Shown here: positions 1 to 63,912 of the stretch, one piece after another
Position numbering within the stretch: position 1 is the stretch's first letter
Layout: every line of letters starts with the position of its first letter
NCBI GenBank assembly: GCA_902799705.1
Contig: CADCBP010000020.1
Span: 27,447 to 91,446, forward strand
DNA from: an uncultured Bacteroidales bacterium
GTDB lineage: Bacteria > Bacteroidota > Bacteroidia > Bacteroidales > Paludibacteraceae
DNA length: 64,000 bases
Direction: 5' to 3'
The notes under the pieces: model-generated
Databases searched by the model: none
Seen by the model: only the letters and a program-made list of their open reading frames with translations
Told to the model about the DNA's origin: nothing
Made by a program: the position numbers and the translations under genes

Positions 1-345
1 CGCCATAACGTCCACGTTCACCATTTGGTTCACCCACCATGTGTCCAGACGTTGCCCGTCCATGGTGAAGTCATTGCCGGTGATGCGTTGTCCCGAAGCC
101 TTCACTTGCAGCGCCCAACGCTTGGTGAACTTATACCGGAAATGAAGACCGTACGCTTCGCGTACATTCGTGAAGATATGAGGAGTAGCATCGCCTACAT
201 AGTAACCGCAACCTCCCTGCAGACCTATCTCACAGAGATACGGCTGCTCGTTCTGCGCCAGTAAAGGTGAAAGGTGAGAGGTGAAAGGTGAAAGGAACAC
301 CATCCACAACCCGATTATTCTATATATATACCTTTCAATTTTCAT
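1..345 (-). CDS. PorG-like (DUF6089-type) outer-membrane protein, N-terminal part
   Basis: Reading the minus strand gives 115 codons without a stop, running off the left edge. The ATG (345-343) overlaps the radA stop (344-342) as ATGA, so translation is probably coupled to radA. The N-terminus has a basic start, a hydrophobic stretch and an LLAQ end that reads as a signal peptide. The mature part (YLCEIGLQGGCGYYVGDA, then FRYKFTKRWALQVKASGQRI) matches the opening strands of the DUF6089/PorG family, which are small outer-membrane barrels linked to the type IX secretion system. Part of the signal peptide is encoded by a GGTGAAA heptamer array (263-295). The assignment rests on the N-terminal third only; another small beta-barrel is possible. 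Confidence 0.72.
   Translation of the reverse strand, partial: MKIERYIYRIIGLWMVFLSPFTSHLSPLLAQNEQPYLCEIGLQGGCGYYVGDATPHIFTNVREAYGLHFRYKFTKRWALQVKASGQRITGNDFTMDGQRLDTWWVNQMVNVDVMA
263..295. repeat. GGTGAAA heptamer tandem array
   Basis: About four degenerate 7-nt units (GGTGAAA, GGTGAGA) occur in tandem. The array lies in frame inside the signal-peptide codons of the PorG-like gene and reads as alternating Ser-Pro-Phe-Thr and Ser-His-Leu codons. Confidence 0.85.
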
Positions 346-1709
346 TTTTCATTTTTCACTATCAACAGACGGAAGGCGTCCGTCACTTTCTTCACGCCCA
401 CCACTTCGATGGAGAAGCGTTTTGGGTCGATTTTTTGTTCTGCAGGAATGAGGATGCGTCTGAATCCTAATTTCTGCGCCTCGGCGATACGTTGCTCGAT
501 GCGGTTGACAGAACGTATTTCGCCTGCCAGCCCCACCTCGCCGCACAGGCATGTACCTGCGTCCAGGGCGATGTCCATGTTACTGCTCAGTACGGCCGCC
601 AGGACAGCCAGGTCGATAGCCGGATCCTGCACCTTCAGCCCTCCGGCGATATTGAGGAACACATCTTTCTGCAGCAGTTTGAATCCCACGCGTTTCTCCA
701 ACACGGCGAGCAGCATGTTCAGCCTTCTGCCGTCAAAACCTGTCGATGAACGCTGCGGTGTCCCGTAGGCGGCCGACGAGACGAGAGCTTGCACTTCGAT
801 CAGGAACGGTCGGACACCTTCTACTGCTGCGGCTATTGCAATGCCCGAAAGGCCTTCGCGCGCCGTGGAGAGCAACAACTCCGAAGGGTTGGTCACCTCG
901 CGCAGCCCCTCCTGGCGCATTTCGTAGATACCGATCTCGGACGTCGAACCGAAACGGTTCTTCTGTGCCCGCAGGATGCGGTACATGTATTGCTGGTCTC
1001 CTTCGAACTGCAGCACCGTATCGACAATATGCTCCAGCACTTTCGGTCCTGCCAGCGAACCCTCTTTGTTGATATGCCCGATGATGATGAAGGGTATATT
1101 ACGGCTTTTCGCAAACTCGAGGATGCGTGCCGCACATTCGCGTACCTGAGTAATACTTCCTATCGTGGCTTCCACGTCTCCGGTGCCGATGGTCTGGATG
1201 GAGTCGATGACAACGATCTCCGGTTCCAGTTCTTTGACCTGGTCAAGGATCCGTTCCAGCGATGTCTCCGAAGAGATAAAGAGGTTCTCTGCATTGCCGG
1301 CGAGCCGCTCTGCGCGCAGTTTGAGTTGGCGCACGCTCTCTTCACCCGAGGCGTAGAATGTCTTCCGTTCGCCTTGCTGCATGAGTACCTGCAGGGCCAA
1401 GGTCGATTTGCCGATACCCGGCTCGCCGCCTAACAACACCAGGCTGCCCGGAACGAGTCCTCCGCCTAACACGCGGTTGAACTCGCCGTTGTGCATGTCC
1501 AGGCGCATCTCTTCGGACGCCTCAATGTCTTGCAGACGCTGTGCGCGGGAAGAACTTGCTGCCTGACGGCTGACGGATGAAGGCTGACGGCTTTCCAACA
1601 CTTCCTCTTCGTACGTGCCCCATTCGCCGCAGACCGGACAACGGCCTAAGAGTTGCGGAGCTTTCGCACCGCAGGATGAGCATACATATTGAATCGTTGT
1701 CTTTGCCAT
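342..1709 (-). CDS. radA: DNA repair protein RadA (Sms)
   Basis: RadA is a RecA-like ATPase and DNA helicase that promotes branch migration in recombination intermediates. The 455 aa match the usual family length. A C4 zinc finger (C10, C13, C24, C27) is followed by a Walker A motif (GEPGIGKST, about 95-103), the RadA signature KNRFG near 250, and a C-terminal Lon-like domain. The linker at about 39-54 is rich in Ser, Arg and Gln and is encoded by a 7-nt array (1563-1590), so it is probably a tolerated expansion between zinc finger and ATPase core. The start overlaps the rnz stop (TAATG), and the stop overlaps the next start (ATGA). Confidence 0.97.
   Translation of the reverse strand: MAKTTIQYVCSSCGAKAPQLLGRCPVCGEWGTYEEEVLESRQPSSVSRQAASSSRAQRLQDIEASEEMRLDMHNGEFNRVLGGGLVPGSLVLLGGEPGIGKSTLALQVLMQQGERKTFYASGEESVRQLKLRAERLAGNAENLFISSETSLERILDQVKELEPEIVVIDSIQTIGTGDVEATIGSITQVRECAARILEFAKSRNIPFIIIGHINKEGSLAGPKVLEHIVDTVLQFEGDQQYMYRILRAQKNRFGSTSEIGIYEMRQEGLREVTNPSELLLSTAREGLSGIAIAAAVEGVRPFLIEVQALVSSAAYGTPQRSSTGFDGRRLNMLLAVLEKRVGFKLLQKDVFLNIAGGLKVQDPAIDLAVLAAVLSSNMDIALDAGTCLCGEVGLAGEIRSVNRIEQRIAEAQKLGFRRILIPAEQKIDPKRFSIEVVGVKKVTDAFRLLIVKNEK
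1563..1590. repeat. CTGACGG heptamer array inside radA
   Basis: Four consecutive 7-nt units (CTGACGG, CTGACGG, ATGAAGG, CTGACGG) lie in the zinc finger-ATPase linker of radA. The unit resembles the TTCTGAC and TGCTGAC arrays at 36885, 43614 and 45407. Confidence 0.85.
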
Positions 1710-2518
1710 TAAATCTCAAATGTCAAATTCTCTTCCGCCAGGAAGGTGTTCTCGAAGATCGGTTTTGCTTCGTCGAGGAACAAACTATGGTCTTCGACGC
1801 GCGCGGAGTAATGTCCCAAGATCAGTTTGCCCGCGTGGGCTTTTTGGGCGATGGTAGCCGCCTGCGCCGCCGTCGAGTGCTTCACTTCCTTGCTCCGTGC
1901 TCCCATCGACTCGAGGAAAGTGGACTCGTGATACAAGGTGTCCACGCCTTCGATGACAGGGAGGATCTTCTCGCTGTACATCGTGTCCGCGCAGTAAGCG
2001 AAACGCTTGCGTGTCACCCGCTCGAAAGAACCGTCTTCTTTCTTCACGCGATGGGTCTCTTTGAAAAGAAAACCGCAGGTCGGCACGCCGTGCTTCAACG
2101 GGATAGTCTCTACGGAGACGGTGCGATCCTCGAAGATGACGGCATGTTTGCGCGGGTTGATGGGATGGAAGATGATGTCGTACTGACGGTCGTTGGCGTG
2201 ATATTCCAACAGCGGCGTCAGCAGACGCTCCAAGTCGGGATGGGCATATATATGCATCGGTTGTGTGCGCTTGAGCATGCCCAGCGTCGTCAGCAAACCG
2301 ATCAGTCCGAAACAATGGTCGCCATGCAGATGCGAGATGAAGATATTATACAGACGCGAGGTGCGCAAACCCAACTTCTGCATCGTCAGCAGTACACCTT
2401 CGCCGCAATCCACGAGGAAGGACTTGTCGCACAACTCCACCCACTGCCCCGAAGGGGAAGTGGTCTTCGTCGGCTTGGCACTGCCGCAACCTAATATCGT
2501 CACCTTACCTGTACTCAT
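1709..2518 (-). CDS. rnz: Ribonuclease Z
   Basis: RNase Z is a metallo-beta-lactamase-fold endonuclease that cuts tRNA precursors after the discriminator base. The 269-aa protein has the signature SHLHGDH (H63, H65, D67, H68), an ADTMYSEK segment and a C-terminal LGHYSAR segment supplying further metal ligands. It is somewhat shorter than the roughly 300 aa common in Bacteroidales. It lies between DUF4954 and radA with a one-base overlap to radA, so it is co-transcribed. Its activity matters here because two protein genes begin a few bases after tRNA 3' ends in this same window. Confidence 0.94.
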   Translation of the reverse strand: MSTGKVTILGCGSAKPTKTTSPSGQWVELCDKSFLVDCGEGVLLTMQKLGLRTSRLYNIFISHLHGDHCFGLIGLLTTLGMLKRTQPMHIYAHPDLERLLTPLLEYHANDRQYDIIFHPINPRKHAVIFEDRTVSVETIPLKHGVPTCGFLFKETHRVKKEDGSFERVTRKRFAYCADTMYSEKILPVIEGVDTLYHESTFLESMGARSKEVKHSTAAQAATIAQKAHAGKLILGHYSARVEDHSLFLDEAKPIFENTFLAEENLTFEI

Positions 2519-2527
2519 ATAAACTAG

Positions 2528-6647: not shown

Positions 6648-6749
6648 GTTGCGTAATGCTCTGATAATGTGTAGTTTACATGATTTAAATTTTAATAAAG
6701 TCTAGGATGCCTCCGAAGCGCCTCCGAAGTTCCCCTGAGATGCCTCTGA
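6648..6749. repeat. Dispersed leader element, copy A
   Basis: About 90 nt immediately upstream of the 225-aa gene match, at roughly three quarters identity by eye, the complement of 50174-50280. The shared core is CTGATAATGTG, then TTTACA, then AAAGTCTAGGATGCCTCCGA. The distal end is a tandem of four 11-nt units (6706-6749, GATGCCTCCGA type). In this copy it is transcribed as the gene's 5' leader. Confidence 0.75.
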
Positions 6750-9104: not shown

Positions 9105-10028
9105 ATGGCTAAAATTGGTGTTTTTGACAGCGGTTATGGCGGATTGACCATCCTCGATGCAATCCGCAAAGAGTTGCCCCGGTACGATTACTTGTACTTG
9201 GGCGACAACGCACGTGCGCCTTACGGCACGCACTCTTTTGACGTCATCTACCGCTATACGCTCCAGGCGGTCAAGTACCTTTTTGAGCACGACTGCACGT
9301 TGGTCATTCTGGCCTGCAACACCGCGAGTGCGAAAGCGCTGAGAACCATTCAGCAAAATGACCTGCCGGTTATTAACGCTGAAAGAATGAAAGAGTTAAA
9401 GCATGAAAGAGTGAACGTGCTGGGAGTCATCCGCCCGACGGTAGAAGCCGTGCCGGCTATCACCAAAACCGGACATGTCGGCATTCTTGCTACACCCGCC
9501 ACGGTCAGTTCCGAGAGTTATGTATTAGAGCTGGAGAAATTGGCGGGATACCGGGATACCGAGATACCGGAATGCCGAAAATTAGTCATTACTCAGCAGG
9601 CCTGCCCGCTCTGGGTGCCGCTTATCGAGGCCGGCGAACACAACGGACCCGGCGCCAAGTACTTCATCGGCAAGTACCTGCGTGAGATACTCGCCAAAGA
9701 TCCTCAGATTGACACCCTCGTGCTCGGTTGTACCCACTATCCGCTCATGAAAGAGCGAATCGACAACTGGCTCGAATTTCGTCATGAGTTGGACGAGTCG
9801 GAATTCCCGCTTCCGGTGGATTCACCCAAGGTGACAACTATCGCACAAGGCGAACTCGAAGCCAAATCGCTTGCGGATTATCTGCGTCGTCACTCCGAGT
9901 ACCGCGACCAACTCTCCACCAACGGAACATGCTCCTATCTGACTACAGAAAATGCGGACCGCTTCTCGCAATCCGCATCTAATTTCCTCGCTTCGCCTGT
10001 TCAGGCGGAGCACATTGATCTGGAGTAA
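9105..10028 (+). CDS. murI: Glutamate racemase
   Basis: MurI makes D-glutamate for peptidoglycan. Both catalytic cysteines are present: C71 in LACNTAS and C209 in LGCTHYPL; the N-terminal GVFDSGYGGLT motif is intact. At 307 aa it is longer than the usual 260-280. Two extra segments, near residues 92-104 and 147-157, coincide exactly with 8-nt tandem arrays at 9384-9415 and 9545-9576, so they are probably in-frame array insertions in surface loops. It ends 12 bp from the convergent aqpZ stop. Confidence 0.96.
   Translation: MAKIGVFDSGYGGLTILDAIRKELPRYDYLYLGDNARAPYGTHSFDVIYRYTLQAVKYLFEHDCTLVILACNTASAKALRTIQQNDLPVINAERMKELKHERVNVLGVIRPTVEAVPAITKTGHVGILATPATVSSESYVLELEKLAGYRDTEIPECRKLVITQQACPLWVPLIEAGEHNGPGAKYFIGKYLREILAKDPQIDTLVLGCTHYPLMKERIDNWLEFRHELDESEFPLPVDSPKVTTIAQGELEAKSLADYLRRHSEYRDQLSTNGTCSYLTTENADRFSQSASNFLASPVQAEHIDLE
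9384..9415 (+). repeat. Octamer array 1 inside murI
   Basis: Four 8-nt units (AGAATGAA, AGAGTTAA, AGCATGAA, AGAGTGAA) are read in frame as a basic helix-like insert. The unit is the same family as the TTTCATTC arrays at 41.5 and 50.0 kb, read on the opposite strand. Confidence 0.85.
9545..9576 (+). repeat. Octamer array 2 inside murI
   Basis: Four 8-nt units (GGGATACC twice, GAGATACC, GGAATGCC) are read in frame as GYRDTEIPEC. A related GAGATACCGGGATTCC run occurs in the nucleosidase-like gene near 12765. Confidence 0.8.
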
Positions 10029-10758: not shown

Positions 10759-12195
10759 TTAGCCGACGCTCCCCTCTAAACTAACTTGCAGCAACTTCTG
10801 CGCCTCCACGGCAAACTCCATCGGCAGTTTTTCCATCACTTCCTTGGCGTAACCGTTCACAATCAATCCCACCGCGTCCTCTACGCCGATGCCTCGTTGA
10901 CGGCAATAGAACAGCTGGTCCTCGTTGATCTTGCTCGTCGTTGCTTCGTGCTCTACGGTCGCCGTAGGGTTGCTGATAATCATGTCAGGGAAGGTGTGTG
11001 CGCCGCACTTGTCGCCCAGCAACAGACTGTCGCACTGGCTGTAGTTGCGTGCATTCTCCGCATGTACACCCATCTTCACCAATCCTCTGTACGCATTCTG
11101 GCTGTGACCTGCAGAGATACCTTTGGATATAATACGCGAGCGCGTGTTCTTGCCGATATGTATCATCTTTGTGCCCGTGTCCGCCTGCTGGTAGTTATTG
11201 GTCACCGCTACCGAATAGAACTCCGCCGTCGAGTTGTCGCCTTTCAAAATACAACTCGGGTACTTCCATGTGATCGCACTTCCCGTTTCCACTTGTGTCC
11301 AGCTCAGACGCGCGTTCTCATGCGTGATCCCTCGCTTCGTCACAAAGTTATAAATACCGCCCTTGCCGTTCTTGTCACCCGGATACCAGTTCTGCACGGT
11401 CGAATACTTCACTTCCGCATCCTTGTGCACCACTATCTCCACAATCGCCGCGTGCAACTGGTTCTCGTCGCGCATCGGCGCCGTGCATCCTTCCAGATAA
11501 CTGAGGTATGCCCCTTCGTCAGCTATTAGCAGCGTGCGCTCGAACTGACCCGTCTTGCCCGCATTGATGCGGAAATACGTACTCAACTCCATCGGACAAC
11601 GGACACCTTTCGGTACATACACAAAACTTCCGTCGCTAAACACCGCCGAGTTGAGTGCTGCATAGAAATTATCCGTCGGAGGAACGACACTTCCCAAATA
11701 CTTCTTCACCAAATCCGGATATTCTTTCACCGCCTCGCTGATGGAACAGAAGATGATTCCCTTCTCGGCTAATGTCTCGCGGAAAGTGGTCTTCACACTC
11801 ACGCTGTCCATGACGGCGTCAACCGCCATGTTTCCTGCCAACGCCGCCCGCTCTTCCAGCGGAATGCCGAGCTTGTCGAAGGTCTTCATGATCTGTTCGT
11901 CTATCTCATCCTTTTGCCCCTGCTCCTTCTTTGCCTTCGGCGCCGCAAAATAAGAGATGGCTTGAAAATCAATCTCGGGAATATCAAGGTGCGCCCATGT
12001 CGGTACAGGCATCGTCTGCCATTTGCGGAAAGCTTTCAGACGAAACTCCAGCAGCCATTCCGGCTCACCTTTCTTCGCCGAAATCAACCGGACGATGTCT
12101 TCGTTCAGTCCCGCCGGCACAATATCGGTCTCCACGTCTGTCGTGAAGCCGTACTTGTACTCCTGCGAAGTGATATCTTGAATAAGGGAATCCAA
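10759..12195 (-). CDS. sufB: Fe-S cluster assembly protein SufB
   Basis: SufB is the scaffold subunit of the SufBCD iron-sulfur assembly complex. The 478 aa cover the whole family, from [24 protein letters not shown] to the C-terminal YCRQRGI and [11 protein letters not shown] motifs. The only in-frame initiation codon before the conserved region is a TTG (12195-12193); an in-frame TAA lies just upstream. That TTG is at the edge of a TTAATTT heptamer array, so the original start context may have been overwritten. No sufC or sufD follows: aqpZ does. A terminator for tRNA-Cys lies immediately upstream. Confidence 0.95.
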
Positions 12196-12225
12196 TTCTT
12201 AATTTTAATTCTTAATTTTTAATTC
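12195..12225. repeat. TTAATTT heptamer array at the sufB start
   Basis: About four 7-nt units (ATTCTTA, ATTTTAA, TTCTTAA, TTTTTAA) abut the sufB TTG codon. The same unit occurs inside mpl (37407-37441) and at 51170-51190. Confidence 0.8.
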
Positions 12226-12467: not shown

Positions 12468-12974
12468 ATGGCAAAATACATCATCATGGCCGAAGAGGGC
12501 GAGCGGTCACTGTTAGACAAAGCCCGTGAAGAACTGGGCCTGGATCTTCATGACGCCACGCTTGTCTTTACCGGAGTCGGGGCAATCAACGTGCTTCGGA
12601 GTCTGAAGAACCTGGACCCTGAGGCGGAATTATATAATATCGGCTATGTCGGCAGCGCTAATTTTGAGCTCGGCACGTGGGTGCAAGTGTCAGAAGTGCG
12701 TTTGAATCACCCGAATGTAAAGTATGAAGAGCCGCGTCTGGAATTGAGCGCTCTTCCTGATTCCGAGATACCGGGATTCCGGAACACCGGCAAAAGAGCC
12801 GTTTGTTATTCGAATTGCGATTTTGTGTTGGCGTCCGATTATAAGGACTGCGTTTTCGATATGGAGTTGGCATTTATCGCCGCTCTCGGATTCAAAAAAC
12901 TGCACAGCCTCAAGTACGTGAGCGATAACCTCAGTCTGCACGCGTACCACGAACATACGAGAGGAGTTGAATAA
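12468..12974 (+). CDS. MTA/SAH nucleosidase-like protein
   Basis: The 168-aa protein resembles the nucleoside phosphorylase/5'-methylthioadenosine nucleosidase superfamily: a nucleotide-binding TGVGAINV loop, a NIGYVGSA strand-turn, and FDMELAFIAAL in the position of the substrate-binding DME motif. It is shorter than typical MTAN enzymes (about 230 aa), so parts of the fold are reduced and activity is not certain. I start at ATG 12468, because the longer frame would begin inside the promoter. It is followed 12 nt later by the RlmI-like gene. Confidence 0.8.
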   Translation: MAKYIIMAEEGERSLLDKAREELGLDLHDATLVFTGVGAINVLRSLKNLDPEAELYNIGYVGSANFELGTWVQVSEVRLNHPNVKYEEPRLELSALPDSEIPGFRNTGKRAVCYSNCDFVLASDYKDCVFDMELAFIAALGFKKLHSLKYVSDNLSLHAYHEHTRGVE

Positions 12975-19082: not shown

Positions 19083-19092
19083 TCGCTTGAAG

Positions 19093-30451: not shown

Positions 30452-30463
30452 GTCTTTATCATC

Positions 30464-30518
30464 TCGGGGGTAAGTCGGGGTAATCTCGGGGTAATCTCGG
30501 GGGTAAGTCGGGGTAATC
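30464..30518. repeat. 11-nt tandem array before comEC
   Basis: Five perfect-length 11-nt units alternate TCGGGGGTAAG and TCGGGGTAATC. The unit resembles the 11-nt TCGGGGGCACT array at 50171-50214. Confidence 0.88.
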
Positions 30519-36752: not shown

Positions 36753-36801
36753 CTCTAAACTCTAAACTCTAAACTCTAAACACTAACCCGTAACCGCTAA
36801 C
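36753..36801. repeat. CTCTAAA heptamer array between mpl and the deaminase
   Basis: Seven consecutive 7-nt units: CTCTAAA four times, then CACTAAC, CCGTAAC, CGCTAAC. The last ones include the mpl stop codon on the minus strand. Confidence 0.88.
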
Positions 36802-38143: not shown

Positions 38144-38258
38144 TTACGATTTGTTCATTTACGATTTGGTCATTTATTTGTTCATTGAACCATTTAACTA
38201 AATGACAAAAATTGCCAAATGGTACATAAATGGTACATGGTACATGACCAAATGGTAC
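38139..38258. repeat. Mixed tandem repeats between mpl and tig
   Basis: TTCATTTACGATTTG-type units (38139-38187) and AAATGGTACAT-type units (38214-38258) fill the gap between the tig stop and the mpl start. There is no recognisable promoter or gene. Confidence 0.75.
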
Positions 38259-41634: not shown

Positions 41635-43533
41635 CATTAGGTCATAAACATGCTCTCCATGACGGATATATATTTTCCCGTCCTGAATAAACTTCGTTCC
41701 CTTTTTGGATGGGTCGGGGGTAAGTTCCTCTAATCCTTGCGGCTGGGAGGGAAAACGGAACTGTATCGTTGAACCGAAATAGGAGGTGCACTCGCCTTGC
41801 AGCGTCGGTTGGCCTTCCTTGTCATAGTTCAGACTAATGCCACCATCCACAAAGAACCATATTTGCCTTACAGCCCCGTTGTTATCTACGATGGCTACGT
41901 AGCATGGAATAAGTACGGAACCGAAGCGTCCCAGCGATGCGGAGAAAGAACCGCTCTCCTCGCTGCCGTTAACCGGATAAAGACCTGCCGCAGGGTGGGC
42001 GACGTCGCTGTACATGCCTAAATGGATATATGGCCGCATGCCTTCGGCGTCCGCCTCCTTGCACGTCAGGATGATGTCGATGATGCCGTCACGTATGACG
42101 GTCTCATCTTTCCAGATCATTGTGTCCGGTGCGAAGAAATAGATTCCTGGCTCCTTCGTCTCCGCCGCAAAGGGCTTGTCCTCTTCCGGCACTTCCGGTT
42201 GCGGGTAGAAGATGATATGAGGTGTCTGGAGGAGGGAGAAACGGTAGGAACTTCCTATAGCGTCATGCATCTCCATCGTATAACGCCATTGGTCCTCTTC
42301 TTGCGACAGCACCAGCGAAGCGCTGACGAAATCGTATGCGGAGCCGATAAAGAGGTTGGCCTCAAAATCGGCTTGGTTCTGGGCCAGTTGCAATCCGCTT
42401 ATACGGCCGTCTTCGAGGCTGTAAGTCCCGGCTACCAGCTCCATCGGCTTGCTCAGAGTTACATCCACCAATACCGTCGGATAGTCGTCCGAATGGCTGA
42501 AATTGAGGGTGTAGAGGAACTGATGGTTGGCGCTGTCGGATTGATTGGAGAGGTATGTGATCACCACGCTGTCTATCGTCAGTGTCACATCTTCCGGTGT
42601 CGGAGGCAACTCCTCGGGGTTGTACAGCATGTTATAACTGCGGGCGTTGACATGCACCGTCGTGCCGTTGTGAGACAGAACCGTGCCTGTGATGAGGATC
42701 GTGTCGCCTTTGGCGTTGTAACTCACTGTCAGGCTGCCGCTCTCTAAATAGTAGGGTGTATATTGTCCCCAGTCCTCTTTGTCCGCACGGATGGCTACGT
42801 AACACGGATCATCGCCGGCGATTTTGCCGAGGTACCCTTTCGAGGCGCTCAGCGAACCTGCCTCTCCGCCGGCATTAATCGGATAGACACCTGCAGGCAT
42901 GGCCATCGTGTCGGACAACAGACGCAACTCTATCCAGTCATACGTCTCGTTCGCCATCTCGTTGAGCGTCACTTCGATATAGTCCGTGCGCTCGCGGAAA
43001 TGAACGACATCCGCAACAAAGTCTATCGTTGTCGCGGACTTAGGCTCGAAGCGGTAGGGATCCTGTTCCGGTTCGGGAGGAACGGGCGTTTCCGAGTAGG
43101 CGAAAGTGAAATCCGGAACGTCGTATGTGTAGGAGACGTCATTGCGTGTCGCCTGGATAGAACCGCTCAACGTACACGTGCCGTCACCGTTCGAGACGAT
43201 GTTGAGGCTGATGGCGGAACTGGAGTAGCAGTAGTACCACATGTCCACAGGATTGCCGTTGGCACTCGTCTTGTGAACAAAACTGCCCACATAACCGATG
43301 GTCCCGTTCGAGGCGTTGAATGAACCGATAGCCGAACGGGTAGCAGGCCAGAGGTCGAACGCCAGCTCGTACGTGCCCGATGAGGTCGAACCCTCGACGA
43401 CGACGAACAGATTATTCTTATCTACCGTCAGATCTTCGATAGTGACCTTTGAGGCATTGACTGTGAATGCCGCAAATGCATGCACTACCGCTGTCAGACA
43501 TATAATGATTATACTTGTTATACGTTTCATCAT
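41620..43533 (-). CDS. Secreted repeat protein with the shared C-terminal tail (637 aa)
   Basis: A signal peptide (MMKRITSIIIICLTAVVHAFA) is followed by four copies of a roughly 130-aa beta-domain, each with a phrase like GxYPxNGxxxxGSFSASxGxxG and a following YVA strand (about 25-150, 160-300, 310-450, 460-590). The N-terminal copy resembles those of the 505- and 1515-aa proteins. The C-terminus FIQDGKIYIRHGEHVYDLM fits the common tail. The start overlaps nothing; the previous stop is 4 nt upstream. Probably a surface protein; function unknown. Confidence 0.8.
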   Translation of the reverse strand: MMKRITSIIIICLTAVVHAFAAFTVNASKVTIEDLTVDKNNLFVVVEGSTSSGTYELAFDLWPATRSAIGSFNASNGTIGYVGSFVHKTSANGNPVDMWYYCYSSSAISLNIVSNGDGTCTLSGSIQATRNDVSYTYDVPDFTFAYSETPVPPEPEQDPYRFEPKSATTIDFVADVVHFRERTDYIEVTLNEMANETYDWIELRLLSDTMAMPAGVYPINAGGEAGSLSASKGYLGKIAGDDPCYVAIRADKEDWGQYTPYYLESGSLTVSYNAKGDTILITGTVLSHNGTTVHVNARSYNMLYNPEELPPTPEDVTLTIDSVVITYLSNQSDSANHQFLYTLNFSHSDDYPTVLVDVTLSKPMELVAGTYSLEDGRISGLQLAQNQADFEANLFIGSAYDFVSASLVLSQEEDQWRYTMEMHDAIGSSYRFSLLQTPHIIFYPQPEVPEEDKPFAAETKEPGIYFFAPDTMIWKDETVIRDGIIDIILTCKEADAEGMRPYIHLGMYSDVAHPAAGLYPVNGSEESGSFSASLGRFGSVLIPCYVAIVDNNGAVRQIWFFVDGGISLNYDKEGQPTLQGECTSYFGSTIQFRFPSQPQGLEELTPDPSKKGTKFIQDGKIYIRHGEHVYDLMRVKE

Positions 43534-43548
43534 TCCATCATTTCACCA
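43529..43548. repeat. CATCATT octamers at a gene junction
   Basis: Short octamers (CATCATTCCATCATTTCACC) cover the stop of the 505-aa gene and the start of the 637-aa gene, giving overlapping ATG and TGA codons on the minus strand. Confidence 0.7.
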
Positions 43549-45055
43549 TTGCTCCTTGCGCATCGTATAGTACTCCGTTGCGCTCGATCATCAGAACCCC
43601 CTCACGGAGCATCTTCTGACTTCTGACTGCTGACTGCTGAATGTCCTCAATGCCTTGAATGCCGTTGACCTGGTACTCGAAATCAAAAGCTTTTATGATA
43701 TACGTATATTCGTTCTCGCACAGCAGGTTGCCCGAAAGGGTATGAGTGTTGCCTGCTTTGGGATTGATGGTTATGATCGATCCGTTAACGACGTACGAAG
43801 AGTTCGAACCATGGTTCACACTCGACCAGAGGCTCAGTTTCTCGTTCGCTATGCTGAAACTGCCGTCCAGTTGTTTGTCCTCCAGCGTCAGCGACACTTC
43901 GTATTCGAGATTTTTCTCGTCTTTGGCGTTGACGAGCACGTTGAAATAGTCGATCTCGCCGCCGGTAGTGAACGGTTCTACCGTCACCTTGTACGGGCTC
44001 AGTTCCATTTCTTTGTTGTCTTCGTCCCAGCCGAACTCAATGCCTTGTCCGTCGTTATCGCTGAAATGATAGTAATGAACCGCCTCGATGCGTTTCTTGC
44101 CATACACGGCCATGTAGTTCGCGTCTATATCCGTGCAGGTGAGTGTGCCGCCGAAGAAACTGTATAGGTTCTCTCCCTTCGACTGGATAAGGATGGTGCT
44201 TAACGAGTCGTTCGCTAAGTAACGTGTCTTGTTGACCTTCAGGTCTTTGACGTAGCTGTTGGAGGCAAACAGCAGATGACCGCTGCCTTGCGTCGCATAC
44301 GAACCGGGGATGGTCTCGGAGGAGGGATAGATAGCGAGTTGTACCTCGTAGTCCCGCTCAGAGTTGTTCTCGCGGTTTTTGCCCGAGCAGTTGAGCGTGA
44401 GGAAGTAGCGTGTTGTGCCGTAATCGCTGTCATCGCGTATGACACTGATGCCGTTGACCGTCATGTCGTAGTTGTGTACCGCCTCGTGGAACTCTCCGTC
44501 GTAACTGAAGATATAGGGCTTGGGTTCGATTCCTTGCTCGAGTATCTCCTCTTCTGCGTAGCAGTAGTTGTAGTTATAGGTGTTCTTTCCGCGGTCTGCC
44601 ATCGCTGCGGCGGTGAAGCACAGACGGCCGATACTGATGCCGTAGTGGCTCTCATCGACTTTGATGATCGTGAAGGTCGAGATAGAGTCCGTGCGGAGCA
44701 GACGCCGCGTACTGCCGTAGTACAACTCGGATGTGACAAGATTGATCGTCTGGTCATTCACGTTCGCACTGCTGCTGGTGGGACTCGCACCTTCGGTCGT
44801 ATAGGTCCCTTCCAACGTCCGGTCGTCGGAATTGATGACTAATTTCACCGTCGTCGTGTAAGTCGTGGTGGGCTTACTGCTGTACTCTGCCGTGTTCTTG
44901 CATTTCTGAGTCCATTCCAAAGTGAACTGGTTCTTACTGTTGCTGGCTAAGGTATCCACCTTCAAGTCGGTGATAGCGCACAGATAGTTGTACGTGGTAG
45001 CCTGAACTGCCATCGTCAGCGCACACAGCGCGATGGTAAAAAAGATCTTCTTCAT
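43538..45055 (-). CDS. Secreted protein with the shared C-terminal tail (505 aa)
   Basis: The signal peptide MKKIFFTIALCALTMAVQA precedes repeated beta-domains. The first (TYNYLCAITDLKVDTLASN to RLCFTAAA) is clearly paralogous to the N-terminal domain of the 1515-aa protein (same SDDRTLEG and FxIxKVxxxHYxI phrases). At least three copies are present. The tail linker GIEDIQQSAVRSQKM is followed by LREGVLMIERNGVLYDAQGA. The linker is encoded by a TTCTGAC/TGCTGAC array (43614-43641). It lies 11 nt downstream of a 44-aa peptide gene. Confidence 0.8.
   Translation of the reverse strand: MKKIFFTIALCALTMAVQATTYNYLCAITDLKVDTLASNSKNQFTLEWTQKCKNTAEYSSKPTTTYTTTVKLVINSDDRTLEGTYTTEGASPTSSSANVNDQTINLVTSELYYGSTRRLLRTDSISTFTIIKVDESHYGISIGRLCFTAAAMADRGKNTYNYNYCYAEEEILEQGIEPKPYIFSYDGEFHEAVHNYDMTVNGISVIRDDSDYGTTRYFLTLNCSGKNRENNSERDYEVQLAIYPSSETIPGSYATQGSGHLLFASNSYVKDLKVNKTRYLANDSLSTILIQSKGENLYSFFGGTLTCTDIDANYMAVYGKKRIEAVHYYHFSDNDGQGIEFGWDEDNKEMELSPYKVTVEPFTTGGEIDYFNVLVNAKDEKNLEYEVSLTLEDKQLDGSFSIANEKLSLWSSVNHGSNSSYVVNGSIITINPKAGNTHTLSGNLLCENEYTYIIKAFDFEYQVNGIQGIEDIQQSAVRSQKMLREGVLMIERNGVLYDAQGAMVK
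43614..43641. repeat. TTCTGAC heptamers in the tail linker of the 505-aa gene
   Basis: Four 7-nt units (TTCTGAC, TTCTGAC, TGCTGAC, TGCTGAA) encode the QQSAVRSQK linker just before the conserved tail. Equivalent units sit at the same place in the 1515-aa gene. Confidence 0.82.
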
Positions 45056-45201: not shown

Positions 45202-45202
45202 A

Positions 45203-45341
45203 ATCCTAAATCCTAAATTTGAAATCCTAAATTTGAAATCCTAAATTTGAAATCCTAAATTTGAAATCCTAAATTTGAAATCCTAAATTTGAAATCCTAA
45301 ATTTGATAAATCCTAAATTTGAAATCCTAAATCCTAAATCC
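45203..45341. repeat. AATCCTAAATTTGA array
   Basis: About nine 14-nt units, each two heptamers (AATCCTA, AATTTGA), with one TAAATCC variation. It separates the 1515-aa gene stop from the 44-aa peptide gene. Confidence 0.92.
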
Positions 45342-50037: not shown

Positions 50038-50171
50038 TTCACTCTTTCATTCTTTCATTCTTTCATTCTTTCACTCTTTCATTCTTTCATTCTTTCATTC
50101 TTTCATTCTTTCCCTCTTTCATTCTTTCATTCTTTCACTCTTTCATTCTTTCATTCTTTCCCTCTTTCACT
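50038..50171. repeat. TTTCATTC octamer array, second locus
   Basis: About sixteen 8-nt units of TTTCATTC, TTTCACTC and TTTCCCTC. Same family as 41521-41634. Confidence 0.92.
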
Positions 50172-50280
50172 CGGGGGCACTTCGGGGGTACTTCGGAGGC
50201 GCTTCGGAGGCATCCTAGACTTTGCTAAAAATTCTTTCTTGTAAATTCCACATTATCAGCGCATTACAACAAACACACCG
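50171..50280. repeat. Dispersed leader element, copy B
   Basis: The complement of this stretch matches the leader of the 225-aa gene (6648-6749), in inverted orientation. The 11-nt array (50171-50214, TCGGGGGCACT to TCGGAGGCATC) is followed by the AAAGTCTAGG and CTGATAATGTG cores. No coding frame follows where copy A has its gene. Confidence 0.75.
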
Positions 50281-50346: not shown

Positions 50347-50401
50347 TTAATTTGTGAACTATTTTTTTTGTCCTTTTGGGGGATCATTTTGGGGCATTTT
50401 T
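50347..50401. repeat. 55-nt direct repeat, left copy
   Basis: TAATTTGTGAACTATTTTTT, then a G-rich run, GATCATTTTGGGGCATTTT. A second copy is at 50936-50990, in the same orientation. Confidence 0.8.
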
Positions 50402-50490
50402 CATCATTTCATCATTCCATCATTCCATCATTCCATCATTCCATCATTTCATCATTTCATCATTTCATCATTTCATCATTTCATCATTCA
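50401..50490. repeat. CATCATTC octamer array
   Basis: Eleven or so 8-nt units (ATCATTCC, ATCATTTC) start right after the left direct repeat, as if inserted there. Confidence 0.9.
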
Positions 50491-50559: not shown

Positions 50560-50935
50560 ATTTTTGTTATTTTTGTAAGGGCAACGCCCGCATTTTTGTA
50601 AGCATTCAACGTGCTGCTATTAAGCAGCGAGTTGGGAGTGTAGGCTTTTACGAGCGCTACAAGCTTGCTTGTGAGCGCTTGTGGAAGATTACGCTCCAGG
50701 CCGCGTGGGCCGCAGGCATAGCGGACGTAAAATGCGCATTTTTGATTACTAAAATATCTACACGGCGTCAGCCATTACACGCGGCTTTGCCGCACCTTTC
50801 ATGCTTCCAAACACGAACTATACACGAATTATTGACGAATTATACACGAACTATTAAGCCCTTCTACGGCCAGTCACGCAATACTCTGCGGCTGTACTGC
50901 CCATCCCTGCTTTATTATATTGTGGACATCACTAC

Positions 50936-50990: not shown

Positions 50991-51169
50991 GACGAACCCC
51001 CAAAATGGGAACAGCATAAAATAAGCATTTAATAAGCATACAATATTGCTTTGTTTCCTTTTATTGCTTTTAAATGCTTTTACTCGTTTGAGTGCGGAGT
51101 TTGGGGATAAAAACTATTTGAGTGCTTGTGCACAAGGAGTTTTTAGCAAACTCTGTTTGCTTAACCTCT

Positions 51170-51291
51170 AATTTTTAATTTTTAATTTCTCTTCCCCCCT
51201 AAATTTGAAATCCTAAATCCTAAATCCTAAATTTGAAACCCTAAATCCTAAATCCTAAATCCTAAATTTGAAATCCTAAATCCTAAATTTG
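51170..51291. repeat. TTAATTT and AATCCTA heptamer arrays
   Basis: A short TTAATTT array (51170-51190) is followed by a longer mix of AATCCTA and AATTTGA units (51199-51291). The second family matches 45203-45341. Confidence 0.9.
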
Positions 51292-61700: not shown

Positions 61701-62827
61701 ACTATTACTACACCAAATACGGTGATAAAGTTTATGACCTCTATGAGTCCGGACTTCAGAAAAAACGTGAAGAGATTGCCGGCGGTGCGGACAAGGTCGG
61801 TAAGATGGCGTTCTATCCCGGCAAGGCGGCTACCGGCAGAAGTTATACACTCTCCAACGGAGTGGCCGCTTCCTCATTCGTCTTCGGTAACCCCACCATG
61901 GGATATATCGACATCTGGGGATTCATCGCCGATAATACGTCGCTTCTGGAGGACGAAATCGGTTATATGAATGCTTCCGGCAATTATCTGACGATTACCA
62001 AGGGCGCACTGGAGGAAGCGGACGCTATCAGCTCCTTGACGCGCTACCTGCCGCCGATGCATGCTATCGTACTGACAAAGAAAGGCGACGCTGATACGTC
62101 CCTCGAGGTGACACTCAATACCAACCGTATCGTCACCGCCGCGAGCCAGATTACCCGTCCTCTCCCGGAACCTGCCTCTGCGCCTAAAAACTATAAATCA
62201 TCAATCATAAATCATAAATCATCAATCCAAAAGGGTATCATGACCGTCACCGCCGTTAACCCTGCTTCCAAGCGCTGCACCTCGCGTCTGCTGCTCGGAC
62301 AAGGATTCAACGAAGCCATCATACGAGGCGAGGACGCTACACTGACGACCATCAATATTGATAACTATACCGCAACATCCGCACCCGCCACGCCGTTTAA
62401 TATCTACGCCGTGGAAGGAAACAGCGGACTCAGTATTGACCTGCGTGACGTCATCGTCAATGTGCCTATCTCCTTCTATAATAGCGAACTGCCATTTGAG
62501 CCGATCTCTTATCTCTGGTTCACCGGCGTCAATAATATAGATGGCGAACTCGTGCTCTACGATGCACTCAACGACACCGAAAGACTGATCCTCGATGGTA
62601 TCCGACTCGAAATAGAAACACCCGAAGTCAGCCATCAGACGCGTTACTTCATCCGCCGTAAGGGCTTCAACCCCAACGGACAGGGTAACCAGGATGATCC
62701 GATAGCTACAGGATGGGATGATATCCGAACCAACGATATGAAGGCCCTGAAACTGATCAAGGACGGACATGTACTCATCATACGAGATGGACATGTTTAC
62801 ACAATGTATGGACAACAAATCAGATGA
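52763..62827 (+). CDS. 3354-aa secreted protein with the shared C-terminal tail
   Basis: The largest gene of the window. A long N-terminal hydrophobic segment (VRILLLISVVMYSVGMWG) serves as signal. The rest is a string of beta-domains: InlB-like FHGWATSPDGDVLYHPGDSI near residue 570, two related units with DTDGNVLGEE or DVDGNVVSSS, a jelly-roll-like region (YFSGFVGNPYNQNGKTCPNF), and near the C-terminus the T9SS-protein phrase WNNPDNWIG..VVIPPMTDGKPYPVMP. The tail reads LIKDGHVLIIRDGHVYTMYG and QQIR. A 35-nt heptamer array is translated in frame near residue 3150. The stop overlaps the start of the 175-aa gene (ATGA). Confidence 0.85.
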   Translation: MNIVCLKNLCKVRILLLISVVMYSVGMWGVGFTPTDGGLVVNLKQSDRILLSVMIDDDNNPSTPDVEYFVCHYPGYTGGHFNYYNWDDKESGNILKLIPQDAGATEPASPSIWSIDDPVPFKSGGKTYPIDGIAYTMWSTNPGGDSYTLVCSPSSTFMYQGYLTREADHANICNAIFVVPTDRGDKVTSFDPNNTMGRGTKFNGEKGYGFLDMPYREVYWLDIPRGNAPLSYTNASVVSFNTTLSDYKYPTDKKQTAKPGQAMYAFADDKHKPTKRTIFRLYVLDEPVTSTCADSYFFAYDEQDFVKYNKNFNDNKAGYTTEKKIYTIDRLVCMERLGETKYYVSDYMFVPIPDSTYYYVGYKNKYCHTDRGDAFNSQFKKIETLPIHYLGLPAPRGAYGQMMVDTTQTGELNLGVEFQPGGYFLRTNTGRNIQLRPSDDYKTWTCEEMWHITAEYAALTIKATMFTGSEYDEHDEGADIPGWSVMVRGTDVPVVGGRSIIDCDGWARIHIDSTDPNGAIEFVPANPDRHIHYNNNGCTGDTIADQYPMYGKTKVAARDARLVKGFTFHGWATSPDGDVLYHPGDSIDLVPGTTTLYAKATYTGTIHVALSFKKADGKRYFLTHPGSDAPRFSRARHIDEWTDAYQGMANAYNVDNRYINTFKVLTHPDPCAECAADEVVLDPRREMRYGAVDSLLFYENFAPAEEEYLGLYYTDPNTVIANHTWAGLFKSTGAGGRNGWPDYTVADVQNVKLSSTHYLGRNGEGNITRYERSNHDAPWIKYNAADNQFDGDASEANATVFQISRVRVADEHYVVIPDTTEEWRDEIVFGIHQGEQTEERVWSKLIGKQLMAMMKLDDDTVYFHPNPNKIITDYMTMRLNANYRLEETFEFIRDARVESLGTVADEDKPHMIGDRLDKNYFGRLIQSGLNTPVDVIYEGEYIDIVDTLRIRLRTLGPVKIKEYYGRWKEGAPGLHVLPDGSRYRDIIIRTKTAHHGAVETKLVLTPEYPVYNFNPLAGDSKRLTFTLAKVLSRQLLDTDGNVLGEEILNTVDVTPSLKLAQGHCTFTSGSPSAYFSVNAAQTINDHVTLVTKSGNSEGINYDTLRINSTAIVEGVTYPVTGRVPLMQSTMSDAELVWSAYANGNRYYIMAGSGGLIFRQYELKGSTLYKKEDGKTQLVKGSANAENSDTKYITPWKYDYVDQAAQQLTLETEYGVDRYFVINGSSEPDVATTGPATLTYVYVNELVNENANFEEQVKLKYGETNWLKFTAPGGVPTLSLTTNEEEATTFSWSYLQQEYNLLNNRDYPNYDELVFGYNTTSGASVQTRYKAYRIYSMLVNNTLTYCGREDENDIADLISAGNDWKTNYTIDLISDSRFSPGASGLSKSTNTGNLTTTVTPAGDSPTDIQYGGKYVNIVDTLDVQISLQPGAPTYRFKDKWSSFTSVNDAHLKIPLIRKTYHEAPFDSLICYVDRDEYNYVFPPEVTGANDTHTFTLGTEHKIGTNILDVDGNVVSSSATSDEHTDDMHLDDPAYADIRLADEYGNAPDWCEISDLGTNTITVHCKGNGIRAPRSANINIAYVINVKGTSRYINFRLQVAQSSRFQYAGNQNLVHSKGASGADLKDGVQQVHENKTILYYYNPSNAAQSTDQRVELPIRERNFYGWWRWYSLQPGEEDTDIPAERWQTEPSNTGRWNFPFRIIGDSVPVDPEDPSKGKKLVTQGRYTVFHYPSADYNARKDPPSKAPMLYPPQNKDTETYAVDLSVYYDNLPLSMKDVNQVDIAKLDTMQNIPEPTLSLREIYELHPWTEMAERMEGYKYALDAAYEGQRYLEDHVMMAPLGNRLLLKTDHRYSYDNIKKGGHSESLLGYYMRDDNWATAGWSDARKDSMIWCGGWDAPCQWYTYNPKTQTYTSCSYSVTEANDFLSVPEKTSIPAGKDADTIIYCLRARSVKTATAGTPGDPDPKDPVAGDYWFNICRYKIIYHRVNKYGPKLEARVGGVDKAIITNDEIEQHYEVLERLNFDYNQPGRHYTVYPKPLPWADASYGFAYPRTAALPDNRPHNKNGLENLANMGEYNLINRIPEFGQYWHKMEQHGSAENGYMIFCDGMSSAGQVAALELDTTLCEGQKMYFSGFVGNPYNQNGKTCPNFTFAVQGSLDGSVWEDITSYMTGDLPAANKWYQIYFPIEQNKEYTKFRVRVYNMAANDDGNDFIIDDMCIFATKPPLMVYQANTTCKNENENDSLTHVVLRVDYQGFTEDIYNLGSEYYTVQDISKSNDTTFLRLEDGYDNEVTRPAIAPSTKDTVYGKINLPNRHYTPAEGNDSIFPNLQELVDRFERTFEAHKDDSSKPVFRKGYVFEHLDDSIRPVFYVIHTAKMSSHDTYIVHMAGASSQLLSSQCALTRKVKVRNRMILTLNGDEMPEKEVQNMCANTLYDVSLHVKGTLLMDNTAPVEVTGTCSNDWLLYGDTTKATSATTYGYDYEDIVKVIQILRADGLYGGDPNANQFARSLADVNKVEMEKIQTALGIVLSVSEEPYRILTHLVNNGYLTLYQSNMTIVTPVNDSVKYTIFPISGSGSEVMQDLNIDVCPTPVHIALKSSLGQGVPMIIGGLNRSEEESQYPIVVLADVEHANSELAIPIDSLMMFPGTDGPKVAIKQIDFISTNDPEFHDGVDRIVLQPDRNWNLEGGENTGYYRNGNDTLLIEHTSETTYRMREGYSYTFGIEMMSNLGESGWGGLGDDCPIGTIPFTISVVPKHLRWAPETEDNRWNNPDNWIGINSSNTALIHENARFAPLSTCYVVIPPMTDGKPYPVMPASILSADSIQKVGFQYNTCHSIRFLPGGALSQQQRLEYDSVIADLSAPHDKWALRSAPIEGLLSGDIFMANADITGEISPWAIGPFDADGRNYNTGNASFWLSLYSRDAIHQNHTATVDTIETEAATWSKVTNALSLELQPAQGWAVYTRTRSNGDAAVRLPKNDDTYYYYTKYGDKVYDLYESGLQKKREEIAGGADKVGKMAFYPGKAATGRSYTLSNGVAASSFVFGNPTMGYIDIWGFIADNTSLLEDEIGYMNASGNYLTITKGALEEADAISSLTRYLPPMHAIVLTKKGDADTSLEVTLNTNRIVTAASQITRPLPEPASAPKNYKSSIINHKSSIQKGIMTVTAVNPASKRCTSRLLLGQGFNEAIIRGEDATLTTINIDNYTATSAPATPFNIYAVEGNSGLSIDLRDVIVNVPISFYNSELPFEPISYLWFTGVNNIDGELVLYDALNDTERLILDGIRLEIETPEVSHQTRYFIRRKGFNPNGQGNQDDPIATGWDDIRTNDMKALKLIKDGHVLIIRDGHVYTMYGQQIR
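62195..62229 (+). repeat. AAATCAT heptamer array inside the 3354-aa gene
   Basis: Five 7-nt units (AAATCAT, CAATCAT, AAATCAT, AAATCAT, CAATCCA) are translated as KSSIINHKSSIQK, unlike the surrounding sequence. Confidence 0.85.
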
Positions 62828-63351: not shown

Positions 63352-63370
63352 GGCCTACCGCCTGACTCGA

Positions 63371-63405
63371 AAAAGGTCATTTCTTCGGAAATGATCTTTT
63401 TTTTG
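63371..63405 (+). terminator. Terminator after the giant-protein operon
   Basis: AAAGGTCATTTC, TTCG tetraloop, GAAATGATCTTT, then T-run. A UUCG-type loop makes it strong. Confidence 0.9.
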
Positions 63406-63609
63406 TTTGCGTATGCGCACATGTGCGCGCTTGCGCGCGTTCCTTATATATAAAACACGTGCGTACACGTACGCGTGCCTTTTTATATAATATAGCATAT
63501 TCTGCGTTTTTCGCCTCAAATACCCTCAAAAATGCGTATTTTGTAACTTGCTTGTTTTCAGTTCATTACAAAGAAAGTGCATTTTTATTGCATTTTTTTT
63601 GCAAAAATA
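63406..63609. other. Spacer with alternating purine-pyrimidine tracts
   Basis: GCGTATGCGCACATGTGCGC and ACGTGCGTACACGTACGCG runs lie between the terminator and the rRNA promoter. I see no gene. Such tracts can adopt left-handed or cruciform DNA. Confidence 0.5.
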
Positions 63610-63641
63610 TTTGGTCATATTAAAAAAAAGTTGTACCTTTG
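63610..63641 (+). promoter_or_regulatory. Promoter of the rRNA operon
   Basis: TTTG at 63610-63613 and TACCTTTG at 63634-63641, 20 nt apart, with an A8 tract spacer. The mature 16S begins about 270 nt downstream. Confidence 0.8.
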
Positions 63642-63912
63642 CACTCGCTTTTGAGAAACAAGTGAGTTTCGATTTTCTACCGCAGGCGCGGACATTAAAA
63701 TTCAGATTCTCCTACGAGGACCTAATTTTTTTGCGCCAAACCGAAGAAAACATCTTTGAAAGATTGATACAATTAGTGTAGTACAAGAACTGAAAAAAAT
63801 AATTCATAAATTTGAAATCATAAATTTGAAATCATAAATATGAATTTGGTTCCCTAAAATTTCTACACTTGATAAATTCGATTATTCTGAGCTATCTTAT
63901 AAATTTCTTTTA
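63642..63912 (+). other. Leader of the 16S rRNA transcript
   Basis: About 270 nt between promoter and mature 16S RNA with no convincing gene. It contains an AATTTGA/AATCATA heptamer array (63803-63846). The short frame at 63548-63781 crosses the promoter and is rejected. Confidence 0.6.
63803..63846. repeat. AATTTGA/AATCATA heptamer array in the rRNA leader
   Basis: About six 7-nt units (TTCATAA, ATTTGAA, ATCATAA and so on). The family matches 45203-45341 and 51199-51291. Confidence 0.85.

What the first reader, a model, noticed from the sequence alone, without database searches (positions are those of the whole stretch)
263..63846. More than twenty dispersed 7-, 8- and 11-nt tandem arrays, several in frame in conserved genes
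Seen directly: degenerate tandem arrays with unit lengths 7 (for example TTAATTT, CTCTAAA, TTCTGAC, AATCCTA, AAATCAT, GGTGAAA), 8 (TTTCATTC, ATCATTCC, GGGATACC) and 11 nt (TCGGGGTAATC). None of these lengths is a multiple of three. Loci: 263, 1563, 6706, 9384, 9545, 12195, 30464, 36271, 36753, 36885, 37407, 38139, 41521, 43529, 43614, 45203, 45407, 50038, 50171, 50401, 51170, 62195, 63803. The same unit recurs at distant loci, which argues for spread rather than local slippage alone. Known parallel: STRR heptamer families of heterocystous cyanobacteria. I know of no description in Bacteroidales. Inference: an active source of intergenic and coding variation. One 9-nt CCTAGGG triplication (2530) is the exception.
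Basis: partly seen in the sequence, partly recalled or inferred. Interest (0 to 1): 0.8.

Follow-up and report, generated by a model that had tools for sequence, protein, structure and literature searches.

The report
Short DNA arrays with species dialects
A genus of uncultured gut bacteria carries many short stuttering DNA stretches, built from units of 7, 8 or 11 letters, whose wording differs from species to species, which replace one another at the same places and even sit inside loops of essential proteins, and this points to a copying process that nobody has identified.

Summary
The window belongs to a draft genome whose named relatives are Bacteroidales/Paludibacteraceae from rumen and gut. 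Exact repeats over 2.87 Mb of the genus peak at 7, 8, 11 and 15 nt and are almost absent at 4-6, 10, 12 and 13. Three results go beyond local slippage. (1) Dialects: TTTCATTC arrays are abundant here, intermediate in the nearest genome and rare in 45 others; AAATCCT here, AAATCGT in other near species. (2) Same site, another unit or none in near relatives. (3) In-frame turnover in five loops of Mpl, RadA and MurI. No reverse transcriptase match in this genome; octamer arrays share no flank; variant order is not shared between loci. Best reading: short pieces spread by ectopic copying and grow by slippage, kept where tolerated; the enzyme is unknown. Heptamer repeats are known elsewhere, so this is a new variant of a known kind.

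The parts
263..295 (+). heptamer array AAAGGTG, 4.7 copies, outside listed ORFs, downstream of radA
   Evidence: kept in near relative G182
333..358 (+). heptamer array TTTCATT at the 3' end of radA; an octamer TTCATTCG array in G182
1563..1592 (+). heptamer array CTGACGG, in frame in the RadA linker between zinc ribbon and ATPase domain; AACCTCT array in a segment of equal length in G182
6709..6729 (+). 11-mer GCCTCCGAAGC, 1.9 copies, outside listed ORFs
9380..9415 (+). octamer array (AAAGAATG type), in frame in MurI loop 1
9544..9578 (+). octamer array (CGGGATAC), in frame in MurI loop 2; 17 nt instead of 47 nt in G138
12194..12225 (+). heptamer array AATTCTT/AATTTTT at the start of the SufB-like ORF; kept in G182
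12759..12790 (+). octamer-type array (16-nt TRF unit), in frame in a 185-aa ORF without Pfam match
30461..30518 (+). 11-mer array TCGGGGTAATC at the start of the ComEC-like ORF; AATCACGTGTT 11-mers in G182 and L048
36271..36342 (+). octamer arrays TTTCATCA/TTTCATTC between deaminase and S41 peptidase genes; CTGANNN heptamers in G182
36753..36800 (+). heptamer array CTCTAAA, between Mpl and deaminase genes; shorter in G182, other units or none in other relatives
36882..36921 (+). degenerate heptamer array TGAATGC/CTGACAA, in frame in Mpl site 2 (does not reach the run-of-9 test)
37408..37441 (+). heptamer array TTAATTT, in frame in Mpl site 1
38137..38246 (+). 15-mer (7+8) array TGGTCATTTACGATT plus 11-mer AAATGGTACAT between trigger factor and Mpl; unaligned stretch 127 nt here, 7 nt in G182 and L048
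41520..41634 (+). octamer array TTTCATTC/TTTCACTC, 14.4 copies
43528..43550 (+). octamer array CATCATTC at the junction of two ORFs
43616..43668 (+). heptamer array CTGACTG running into TGAATGC-like units, inside a 505-aa ORF without Pfam match
45202..45341 (+). heptamer array, alternating AAATCCT and AAATTTG, about 20 units
50038..50169 (+). octamer array TTTCATTC, 16.5 copies, intergenic
50171..50212 (+). 11-mer array TCGGAGGCACT abutting the octamers
50399..50488 (+). octamer array TTTCATCA, 11.2 copies
50811..50855 (+). 11-mer array ACACGAACTAT; same unit at G000:C5:70107
51169..51291 (+). heptamer arrays TAATTTT then AAATCCT/AAATTTG
62193..62227 (+). heptamer array ATAAATC, inside a 3354-aa ORF; at that place G138 has other sequence with a weak 8-nt repeat
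63804..63844 (+). heptamer array AAATCAT/AAATTTG (14-nt TRF unit)

Best explanation
A population of dispersed short tandem arrays with preferred unit lengths of 7, 8, 11 and 15 nt. Shown: a unit of one wording occupies many unlinked loci of one genome and is rarer or replaced by another wording in related species; the same intergenic gap or protein loop holds different arrays in different species; empty sites exist. Inferred mechanism: short pieces of existing arrays (one to a few units) are copied to other places, probably by replication or repair synthesis that switches template at a few bases of homology and leaves no flanking sequence behind. An existing array or A/T-rich gap is a favoured acceptor, so sites are reused and units replaced. 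Once two or more units are present, slippage or unequal exchange grows, shrinks and homogenises them. Purifying selection then keeps arrays only between genes, at gene ends, or in protein loops when the net length change is a multiple of three and the strand read lacks stops. The enzyme is not identified. I think the arrays are mostly by-products that supply variation, not a dedicated regulatory system.
For: Excess over shuffles. Spectrum over 2.87 Mb (runs of 14 or more matches; periods 4-30 examined; one array may give several runs): period 7: 96, 8: 45, 11: 41, 15: 21, 9: 16, but 4-6: 1 in all, 10: 2, 12: 4, 13: 3. Wording: TTTCATTC x3 (2 mismatches) 158 match positions in this genome, 0-8 in each of 45 relatives, 27 of them of the genus; with 3 mismatches, over 14 near relatives, 223 here, 59 in the nearest (G182), 29 in G159, 16 or fewer in the other 12. 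AAATCCT x3 (3 mismatches): 120 here, 24 or fewer in each of the 14. AAATCGT x3 (1 mismatch): 0 here and in G182, but 18, 14, 11 and 10 in G143, G139, G194 and G158. Identical units are shared within genomes more than expected from shuffled labels (7-mers: 78 pairs against 37.9, p=0.0002; 8-mers: 20 against 10.9, p=0.02). Unit replacement at the same site: RadA linker CTGACGG/AACCTCT, both 58 nt; C5:116418 octamers/AATTAAA heptamers with one octamer relic; C2 octamers/TTCACTAA. Clean empty site: trigger factor-Mpl 127 nt against 7 nt in G182 and L048. In-frame arrays (run of 9 or more) in five loops: 19 of 67, 10 of 67, 4 of 18, 5 of 30, 5 of 24 sequences, null 0.2 or less each; a CATCAGC array sits in Mpl of some species and in MurI of another.
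Against: The order of variant units (TTTCATTC, TTTCACTC) is not shared between loci more than in shuffles (shared 5-unit words 104 against 114.5), so copying of long blocks is not supported; only short pieces, or independent growth from short seeds, fit. The C/T variants could also be recurrent mutation. Microhomology at junctions was read by eye at few sites and not tested. 11-mers show no significant within-genome sharing (3 pairs against 1.3, p=0.11). By my reading about 10 of the 27 sites compared with G182 keep the same unit, so turnover is not universal. One other Bacteroidales genome (G034) shows similar arrays in a 35 kb sample, so the trait is not confined to this genus. The relatives with a title are mostly MAGs and all genomes are drafts; array lengths may be wrong.
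Confidence: 0.6

Rival explanations
1. Local slippage only: each array arises where it stands by repeated duplication of local sequence, and shared wording is convergence through base composition or a sequence preference of the polymerase.
For: Copy-number differences between near relatives are seen; variant order is not shared between loci; heptamer excess is known in many bacteria and has been ascribed to slippage (Mrazek 2007 as told in PMC4679880 and PMC4692102).
Against: The same octamer at about 22 examined places of one genome and rare in most relatives; different units at the same codons; almost no units of 4-6 nt (periods 1-3 not examined).
Confidence: 0.17
2. Insertion of a mobile element (MITE, REP-like element, retro-element) that carries the array.
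For: Clean empty sites and dispersal; reverse transcriptase matches in 14 of 61 genomes of the genus and Y1 transposase-like matches in 23 of 61, 18 over the cut-off.
Against: 25 octamer array segments show no common flank by eye; no RVT_1 match in this genome, 94% complete, which has the most octamer matches; its single Y1_Tnp match is below the family cut-off; many different units, so not one element.
Confidence: 0.06
3. Arrays are exchanged between species by homologous recombination of the flanks, and unit changes at a site are imported alleles.
For: Octamers at 36271 are shared by this genome and G095 but not by the similarly near G182 and L048.
Against: Does not by itself create one wording across many unlinked loci. 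Flank identity was about 82-95% at swapped and 76-99% at kept sites (by eye, no test).
Confidence: 0.07
4. Arrays are selected binding or regulatory sites, for example in 5' leaders, with a species-specific binding protein.
For: Of 262 arrays between genes on one strand 173 have the G-richer strand as coding strand (p=2e-7; orthologous loci counted as independent); several octamer arrays lie close to a start codon (by eye); a regulator was proposed for TAACTGA repeats (PMC4679880).
Against: Arrays between convergent or divergent genes do not follow the majority strand (40 of 71) and in-ORF arrays show no bias (113 of 233); arrays come and go between near relatives.
Confidence: 0.1

Closest known systems
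STRR heptamer repeats of heterocystous cyanobacteria (mostly recalled; listing and a passage on Calothrix in PMC4692102)
   Same: Dispersed heptanucleotide tandem arrays, several families per genome.
   Different: Here 8-, 11- and 15-nt units too, in-frame arrays in conserved genes, and unit replacement at orthologous sites shown across species.
TAACTGA direct repeats of Beggiatoaceae, cyanobacteria and some Bacteroidetes (PMC4679880; abstract and sections 3, 10, 23 read)
   Same: Heptamer arrays, mostly intergenic, patchy distribution, some within ORFs, found also in Paludibacter; [quoted passage not shown]
   Different: One fixed unit was studied there; here many units, with wording differing between species of one genus.
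GGGAATC / GGGGA(C/T)T heptamers of Xanthomonas and Nostoc (PMC4692102; abstract and found passages seen)
   Same: 186 and 183 heptamer patterns in two Xanthomonas genomes, the majority between the same genes, with length and sequence variation.
   Different: G-quadruplex type; heptamers here often lack G or C on a strand (175 of 249, 133 expected), and units change outright.
Long simple sequence repeats of Mrazek 2007 (not held; seen as cited in PMC4679880 and PMC4692102)
   Same: Units of 5-11 nt with heptamers most common.
   Different: The passages that I saw tell nothing of species wording, unit swaps or in-frame loops.
Rickettsia palindromic elements (recalled; search listing only)
   Same: Repeats inserted in frame in conserved proteins.
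   Different: Those are longer palindromic elements (recalled); array units here show no excess of palindromes.

Membership tests
Short tandem heptamer repeats (STRR / long SSR class) | Head-to-tail units of 5-11 nt, heptamers most common | tested here: met
   7: 249, 11: 107, 8: 95 of 760 arrays, TRF score 45 or more; exact-run spectrum
Short tandem heptamer repeats (STRR / long SSR class) | More than chance and mainly intergenic | tested here: met
   13 of 19 window arrays mainly outside listed ORFs that cover 89%
Short tandem heptamer repeats (STRR / long SSR class) | Same unit at many unlinked loci | tested here: met
TAACTGA repeats | Unit TAACTGA | not tested
   No count made; one 14-nt array in G000:C3 contains TAACTGA
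TAACTGA repeats | Arrays just upstream of start codons in the forward direction | tested here: inconclusive
   seen by eye at several octamer sites; no distance statistics made
Phase-variation contingency repeats | Copy number switches a reading frame or promoter | not testable with these tools
   needs strains or long reads; one search compares open frames only and cannot tell
Phase-variation contingency repeats | Short units, mostly 1-5 nt (as in the abstract of PMC4692102) | tested here: inconclusive
   one run of 14 or more matches at periods 4-6 in 2.87 Mb; periods 1-3 not examined
MITE or other transposable element | Common terminal sequence | tested here: not met
   25 octamer segments, flanks of 60 nt differ (by eye)
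MITE or other transposable element | Target-site duplication | tested here: inconclusive
   trigger factor-Mpl site: none seen, but the array unit itself overlaps the flank
Product of a reverse transcriptase (telomerase-like or defence type) | RVT_1 gene in the genome | tested here: not met
   no match in G000 (94% complete, so a gene in the missing part is not excluded); 14 of 61 genomes of the genus have one

The most novel reading that the evidence does not exclude
An unidentified, protein-directed repeat-writing process, not reverse transcription of the RVT_1 kind, installs or overwrites arrays of a species-specific wording at tolerated sites. Its step size would explain units of 7/8, 11 and 15 nt (near multiples of 3.7 nt) and the near absence of 4-6, 10, 12 and 13. 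Change of the guiding element would change the dialect of the whole genome.
Probability: 0.1. Interest if true: 0.9.

Novelty: new variant of a known kind. Interest (0 to 1): 0.6.

Why it matters
Heptamer repeats have been noted in several bacteria, and the papers that I saw name no way of spread. This genus offers 178 held genomes with dialects, empty sites, unit swaps and in-frame inserts at the same loops of Mpl, RadA and MurI, so that rate, donor, junctions and selection can be measured. It also shows a supply of new loop peptides in conserved enzymes, made from frame-neutral repeats, and warns that intergenic and loop variation in these genomes is not ordinary drift or assembly noise.

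Tried and rejected
Reverse transcriptase or telomerase-like origin: no RVT_1 match in G000. REP-type Y1 transposase: one sub-threshold match in G000. Hairpin-driven units (palindrome plus loop): no excess of 4- or 6-nt palindromes in the distinct 7-, 8-, 11- or 15-mers; the nearest is 8-mers, 26 against 22.4, reached by 78 of 500 shuffles. Block copying of array haplotypes: not supported. Phage vector: the exact TTTCATTC x3 pattern is in 2 stretches of viral contigs; an AAATCCT pattern is in 17 stretches, three of them on one contig; not followed up. Replication-strand rule: array skew follows local GC skew (24/6/19/28, p=9e-4), but gene strand and replication could not be separated; among arrays between convergent or divergent genes 40 of 71 agree with the majority strand, not significant. 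Three-letter units: 175 of 249 heptamers lack G or C on a strand, 133 expected if G/C identity is dealt at random; 8-mers 43 of 95 against 35.0; 11-mers 12 of 107 against 14.2.

Limits. The built-in control of the genome search (pattern read backwards) is uninformative, where the reversed pattern is nearly the same repeat and gives about as many matches; for the control is 0 in all genomes, and for it is 0 in 14 of 15 genomes and 1 in G153. One search did not hold the nearest relatives; one search did, using 14 of the 17 best TypA matches (G004, G002 and G046 left out). Controls from other Bacteroidales were small (14-80 kb each): G034 has one run each at 7, 8 and 15 nt in 35 kb, a density like that of the genus; G026 one run at 7; G040 runs at 21 only; G025 and G029 none. 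AATTTTT arrays (2 mismatches) occur in 15 of 25 genomes of the genus (G000 included) and 3 of 16 others. One search had no shuffle control. The ORF caller is crude (89-92% coding) and over-counts in-ORF arrays. The first MurI script found nothing through a faulty motif and was redone. The RadA motif also failed first and was redone. Anchors matched 67 of 81 Mpl sequences (80 named plus window), 18 of 30 RadA loci, 30 and 24 of 30 MurI loci; the 30 loci are the best of 37 and 38 genomes with a match. The search for related loci kept the best 80 of 236. The named set and the G182 stretch overlap by about 16 kb, so a few arrays count twice.


Full report
Observation. At score 50 or more 27 rows stand against a mean of 0.2 in 50 block-wise dinucleotide shuffles. 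Most window arrays lie between genes or at gene ends (13 of 19); some are in frame in RadA, MurI and Mpl.

Organism. The Mpl protein finds 236 relatives in genome contigs, of which the best 80 were kept; their titles read Bacteroidales or Paludibacteraceae, with one Bacteroidia and one Candidatus Colicola coprequi, which NCBI places in Paludibacteraceae. Where a title names a source it is rumen, another gut part or faeces. The window is part of G000, 2.33 Mb in 45 contigs, 94% complete.

Extent. In 456 kb of G000 there are 98 arrays of score 50 or more, in 1.48 Mb of named loci 308. Exact runs of 14 or more matches over 2.87 Mb of the genus: period 7: 96, 8: 45, 11: 41, 14: 35, 16: 28, 15: 21, 21: 20, 24: 20, 9: 16, 22: 14, 30: 13, 18: 9, 23: 9, 28: 7, against 4-6: 1, 10: 2, 12: 4, 13: 3, 17: 0, 19: 1. 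Many of the longer ones are multiples or sums of 7, 8 and 11. The 15-mers that I looked at are an 8-mer and a 7-mer with a common AAAT core (for example TAAATGAACAAATCG, by eye). The 249 heptamer arrays use only 95 distinct units.

Dialects. Octamer TTTCATTC x3 with up to 2 mismatches: 158 match positions in G000 and 0-8 in each of 45 relatives, 6 of 46 genomes having any. Over 14 near relatives, with 3 mismatches, G000 has 223, G182 59, G159 29, the other 12 have 16 or fewer: the nearest genomes have the family in lesser amount, so it is not strictly private. AAATCCT x3 (3 mismatches): G000 120, next G137 24. AAATCGT x3 (1 mismatch): G143 18, G139 14, G194 11, G158 10, G188 7, five others 1-2, and G000, G182, G146, G108 and G153 none. 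These are match positions, not arrays. A label permutation shows excess sharing of identical units within genomes for 7-mers (p=0.0002) and 8-mers (p=0.02), not for 11-mers (p=0.11).

Turnover at the same place. Of 208 G000 sites of score 40 or more in 561 kb, 29 had both flanks in the fetched stretches of near relatives, 27 of them in G182. Read by eye, about 10 of the 27 keep the unit (among them both MurI arrays, Mpl site 1, 12194), 8 hold another unit (among them the RadA linker, 30461, 36271, C3:19094, C5:116418, C5:122890 and the C2 octamers), 4 are empty or hold other sequence (38137 and 38217, one insertion; C4:82703; the C8 octamers), and 5 are conserved coding sequence or unclear. 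In the named set four intergenic gaps of this neighbourhood hold an array (TRF 32 or more) in 26 of 71, 13 of 63, 17 of 40 and 22 of 62 sequences, with many different units (no shuffle control).

In-frame inserts. Mpl site 1 has a short form in 30 of 67 sequences (39 nt between anchors) and longer forms in the others; 19 of 67 hold a repeat run of 9 or more (null 0.18), 13 of them of period 7, with 17 different sequences. Mpl site 2: 10 of 67; RadA linker: 4 of 18; MurI loop 1: 5 of 30; MurI loop 2: 5 of 24; null 0.14 or less each. The window's own Mpl site 2 array is too degenerate for this test. Lengths are multiples of three by construction, since both anchors were sought in one open frame. 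A CATCAGC array codes HQPSAIS in Mpl (L052, L060, L106, L107) and in MurI (L189).

Mechanism. No shared flank is seen around 25 octamer segments, no RVT_1 match exists in G000, Y1_Tnp is below its cut-off there, and units show no palindrome excess. Both main octamer variants, TTTCATTC and TTTCACTC, occur in 20 of 22 arrays in about equal number (105 and 107 of 239 units), but their order is not shared between loci. I therefore favour copying of short pieces followed by local growth, over copying of long blocks or slippage alone; the junctions were not tested statistically. The orientation bias (173 of 262 arrays between co-directional genes) is moderate, and I do not build on it.

Literature. 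Three works set the frame: MacGregor 2015 (PMC4679880, abstract and sections 3, 10, 23), the Xanthomonas/Nostoc quadruplex paper (PMC4692102, abstract and passages), and Mrazek 2007 (not held; as cited in both). In nine searches I saw no title or abstract about Paludibacteraceae arrays, about species wording of heptamers within a genus, or about in-frame turnover of such arrays; only open-licence papers are held, and the listings were capped.

Noticed in passing
L057, L058, L088 (Mpl site 1), L178 and L190 (MurI loop 1), L191 (MurI loop 2), L133 (RadA linker): A second element, a short G+C-rich inverted repeat (CTCCCTCC..GGGGAGGG type), also sits in frame in the same loops, somewhat like Rickettsia palindromic elements.
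   Followed up: no
L130, L138, L140 (RadA linker), L183, L188, L190 (MurI), L086 and L107 (trigger factor-Mpl gap): A third repeat type with about 16-17 nt spacing, built on GCGGTC/GACCGC and CAGCG-like parts, in frame in the genes.
   Followed up: no
L134, L135, L150: RadA matches of G015, G046 and G024 are reported with one in-frame stop each; position not examined.
   Followed up: no
L072, Mpl site 1: The insert contains AGATCGGAAGA, which I recall as the start of a sequencing adapter, inside an AAATCAC array; may be chance or an assembly fault.
   Followed up: no
50038-50212; L254 and L256 near their octamer arrays: Octamer arrays lie beside GGAGGCA-type 11-mer arrays at three loci, as if arrays collect beside arrays.
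   Followed up: partly
G000:C4:111279-111363: An AAAC tetramer array of 21.5 copies, the only array with a unit under 7 nt among the 98 of the 456 kb sample.
   Followed up: no
52763-62827: A 3354-aa ORF with one weak Listeria-Bacteroides repeat domain match (below the curated cut-off); it holds an ATAAATC array near its C-terminus.
   Followed up: partly
19092-19482: tmRNA with predicted tag GNNGYALAA.
   Followed up: no
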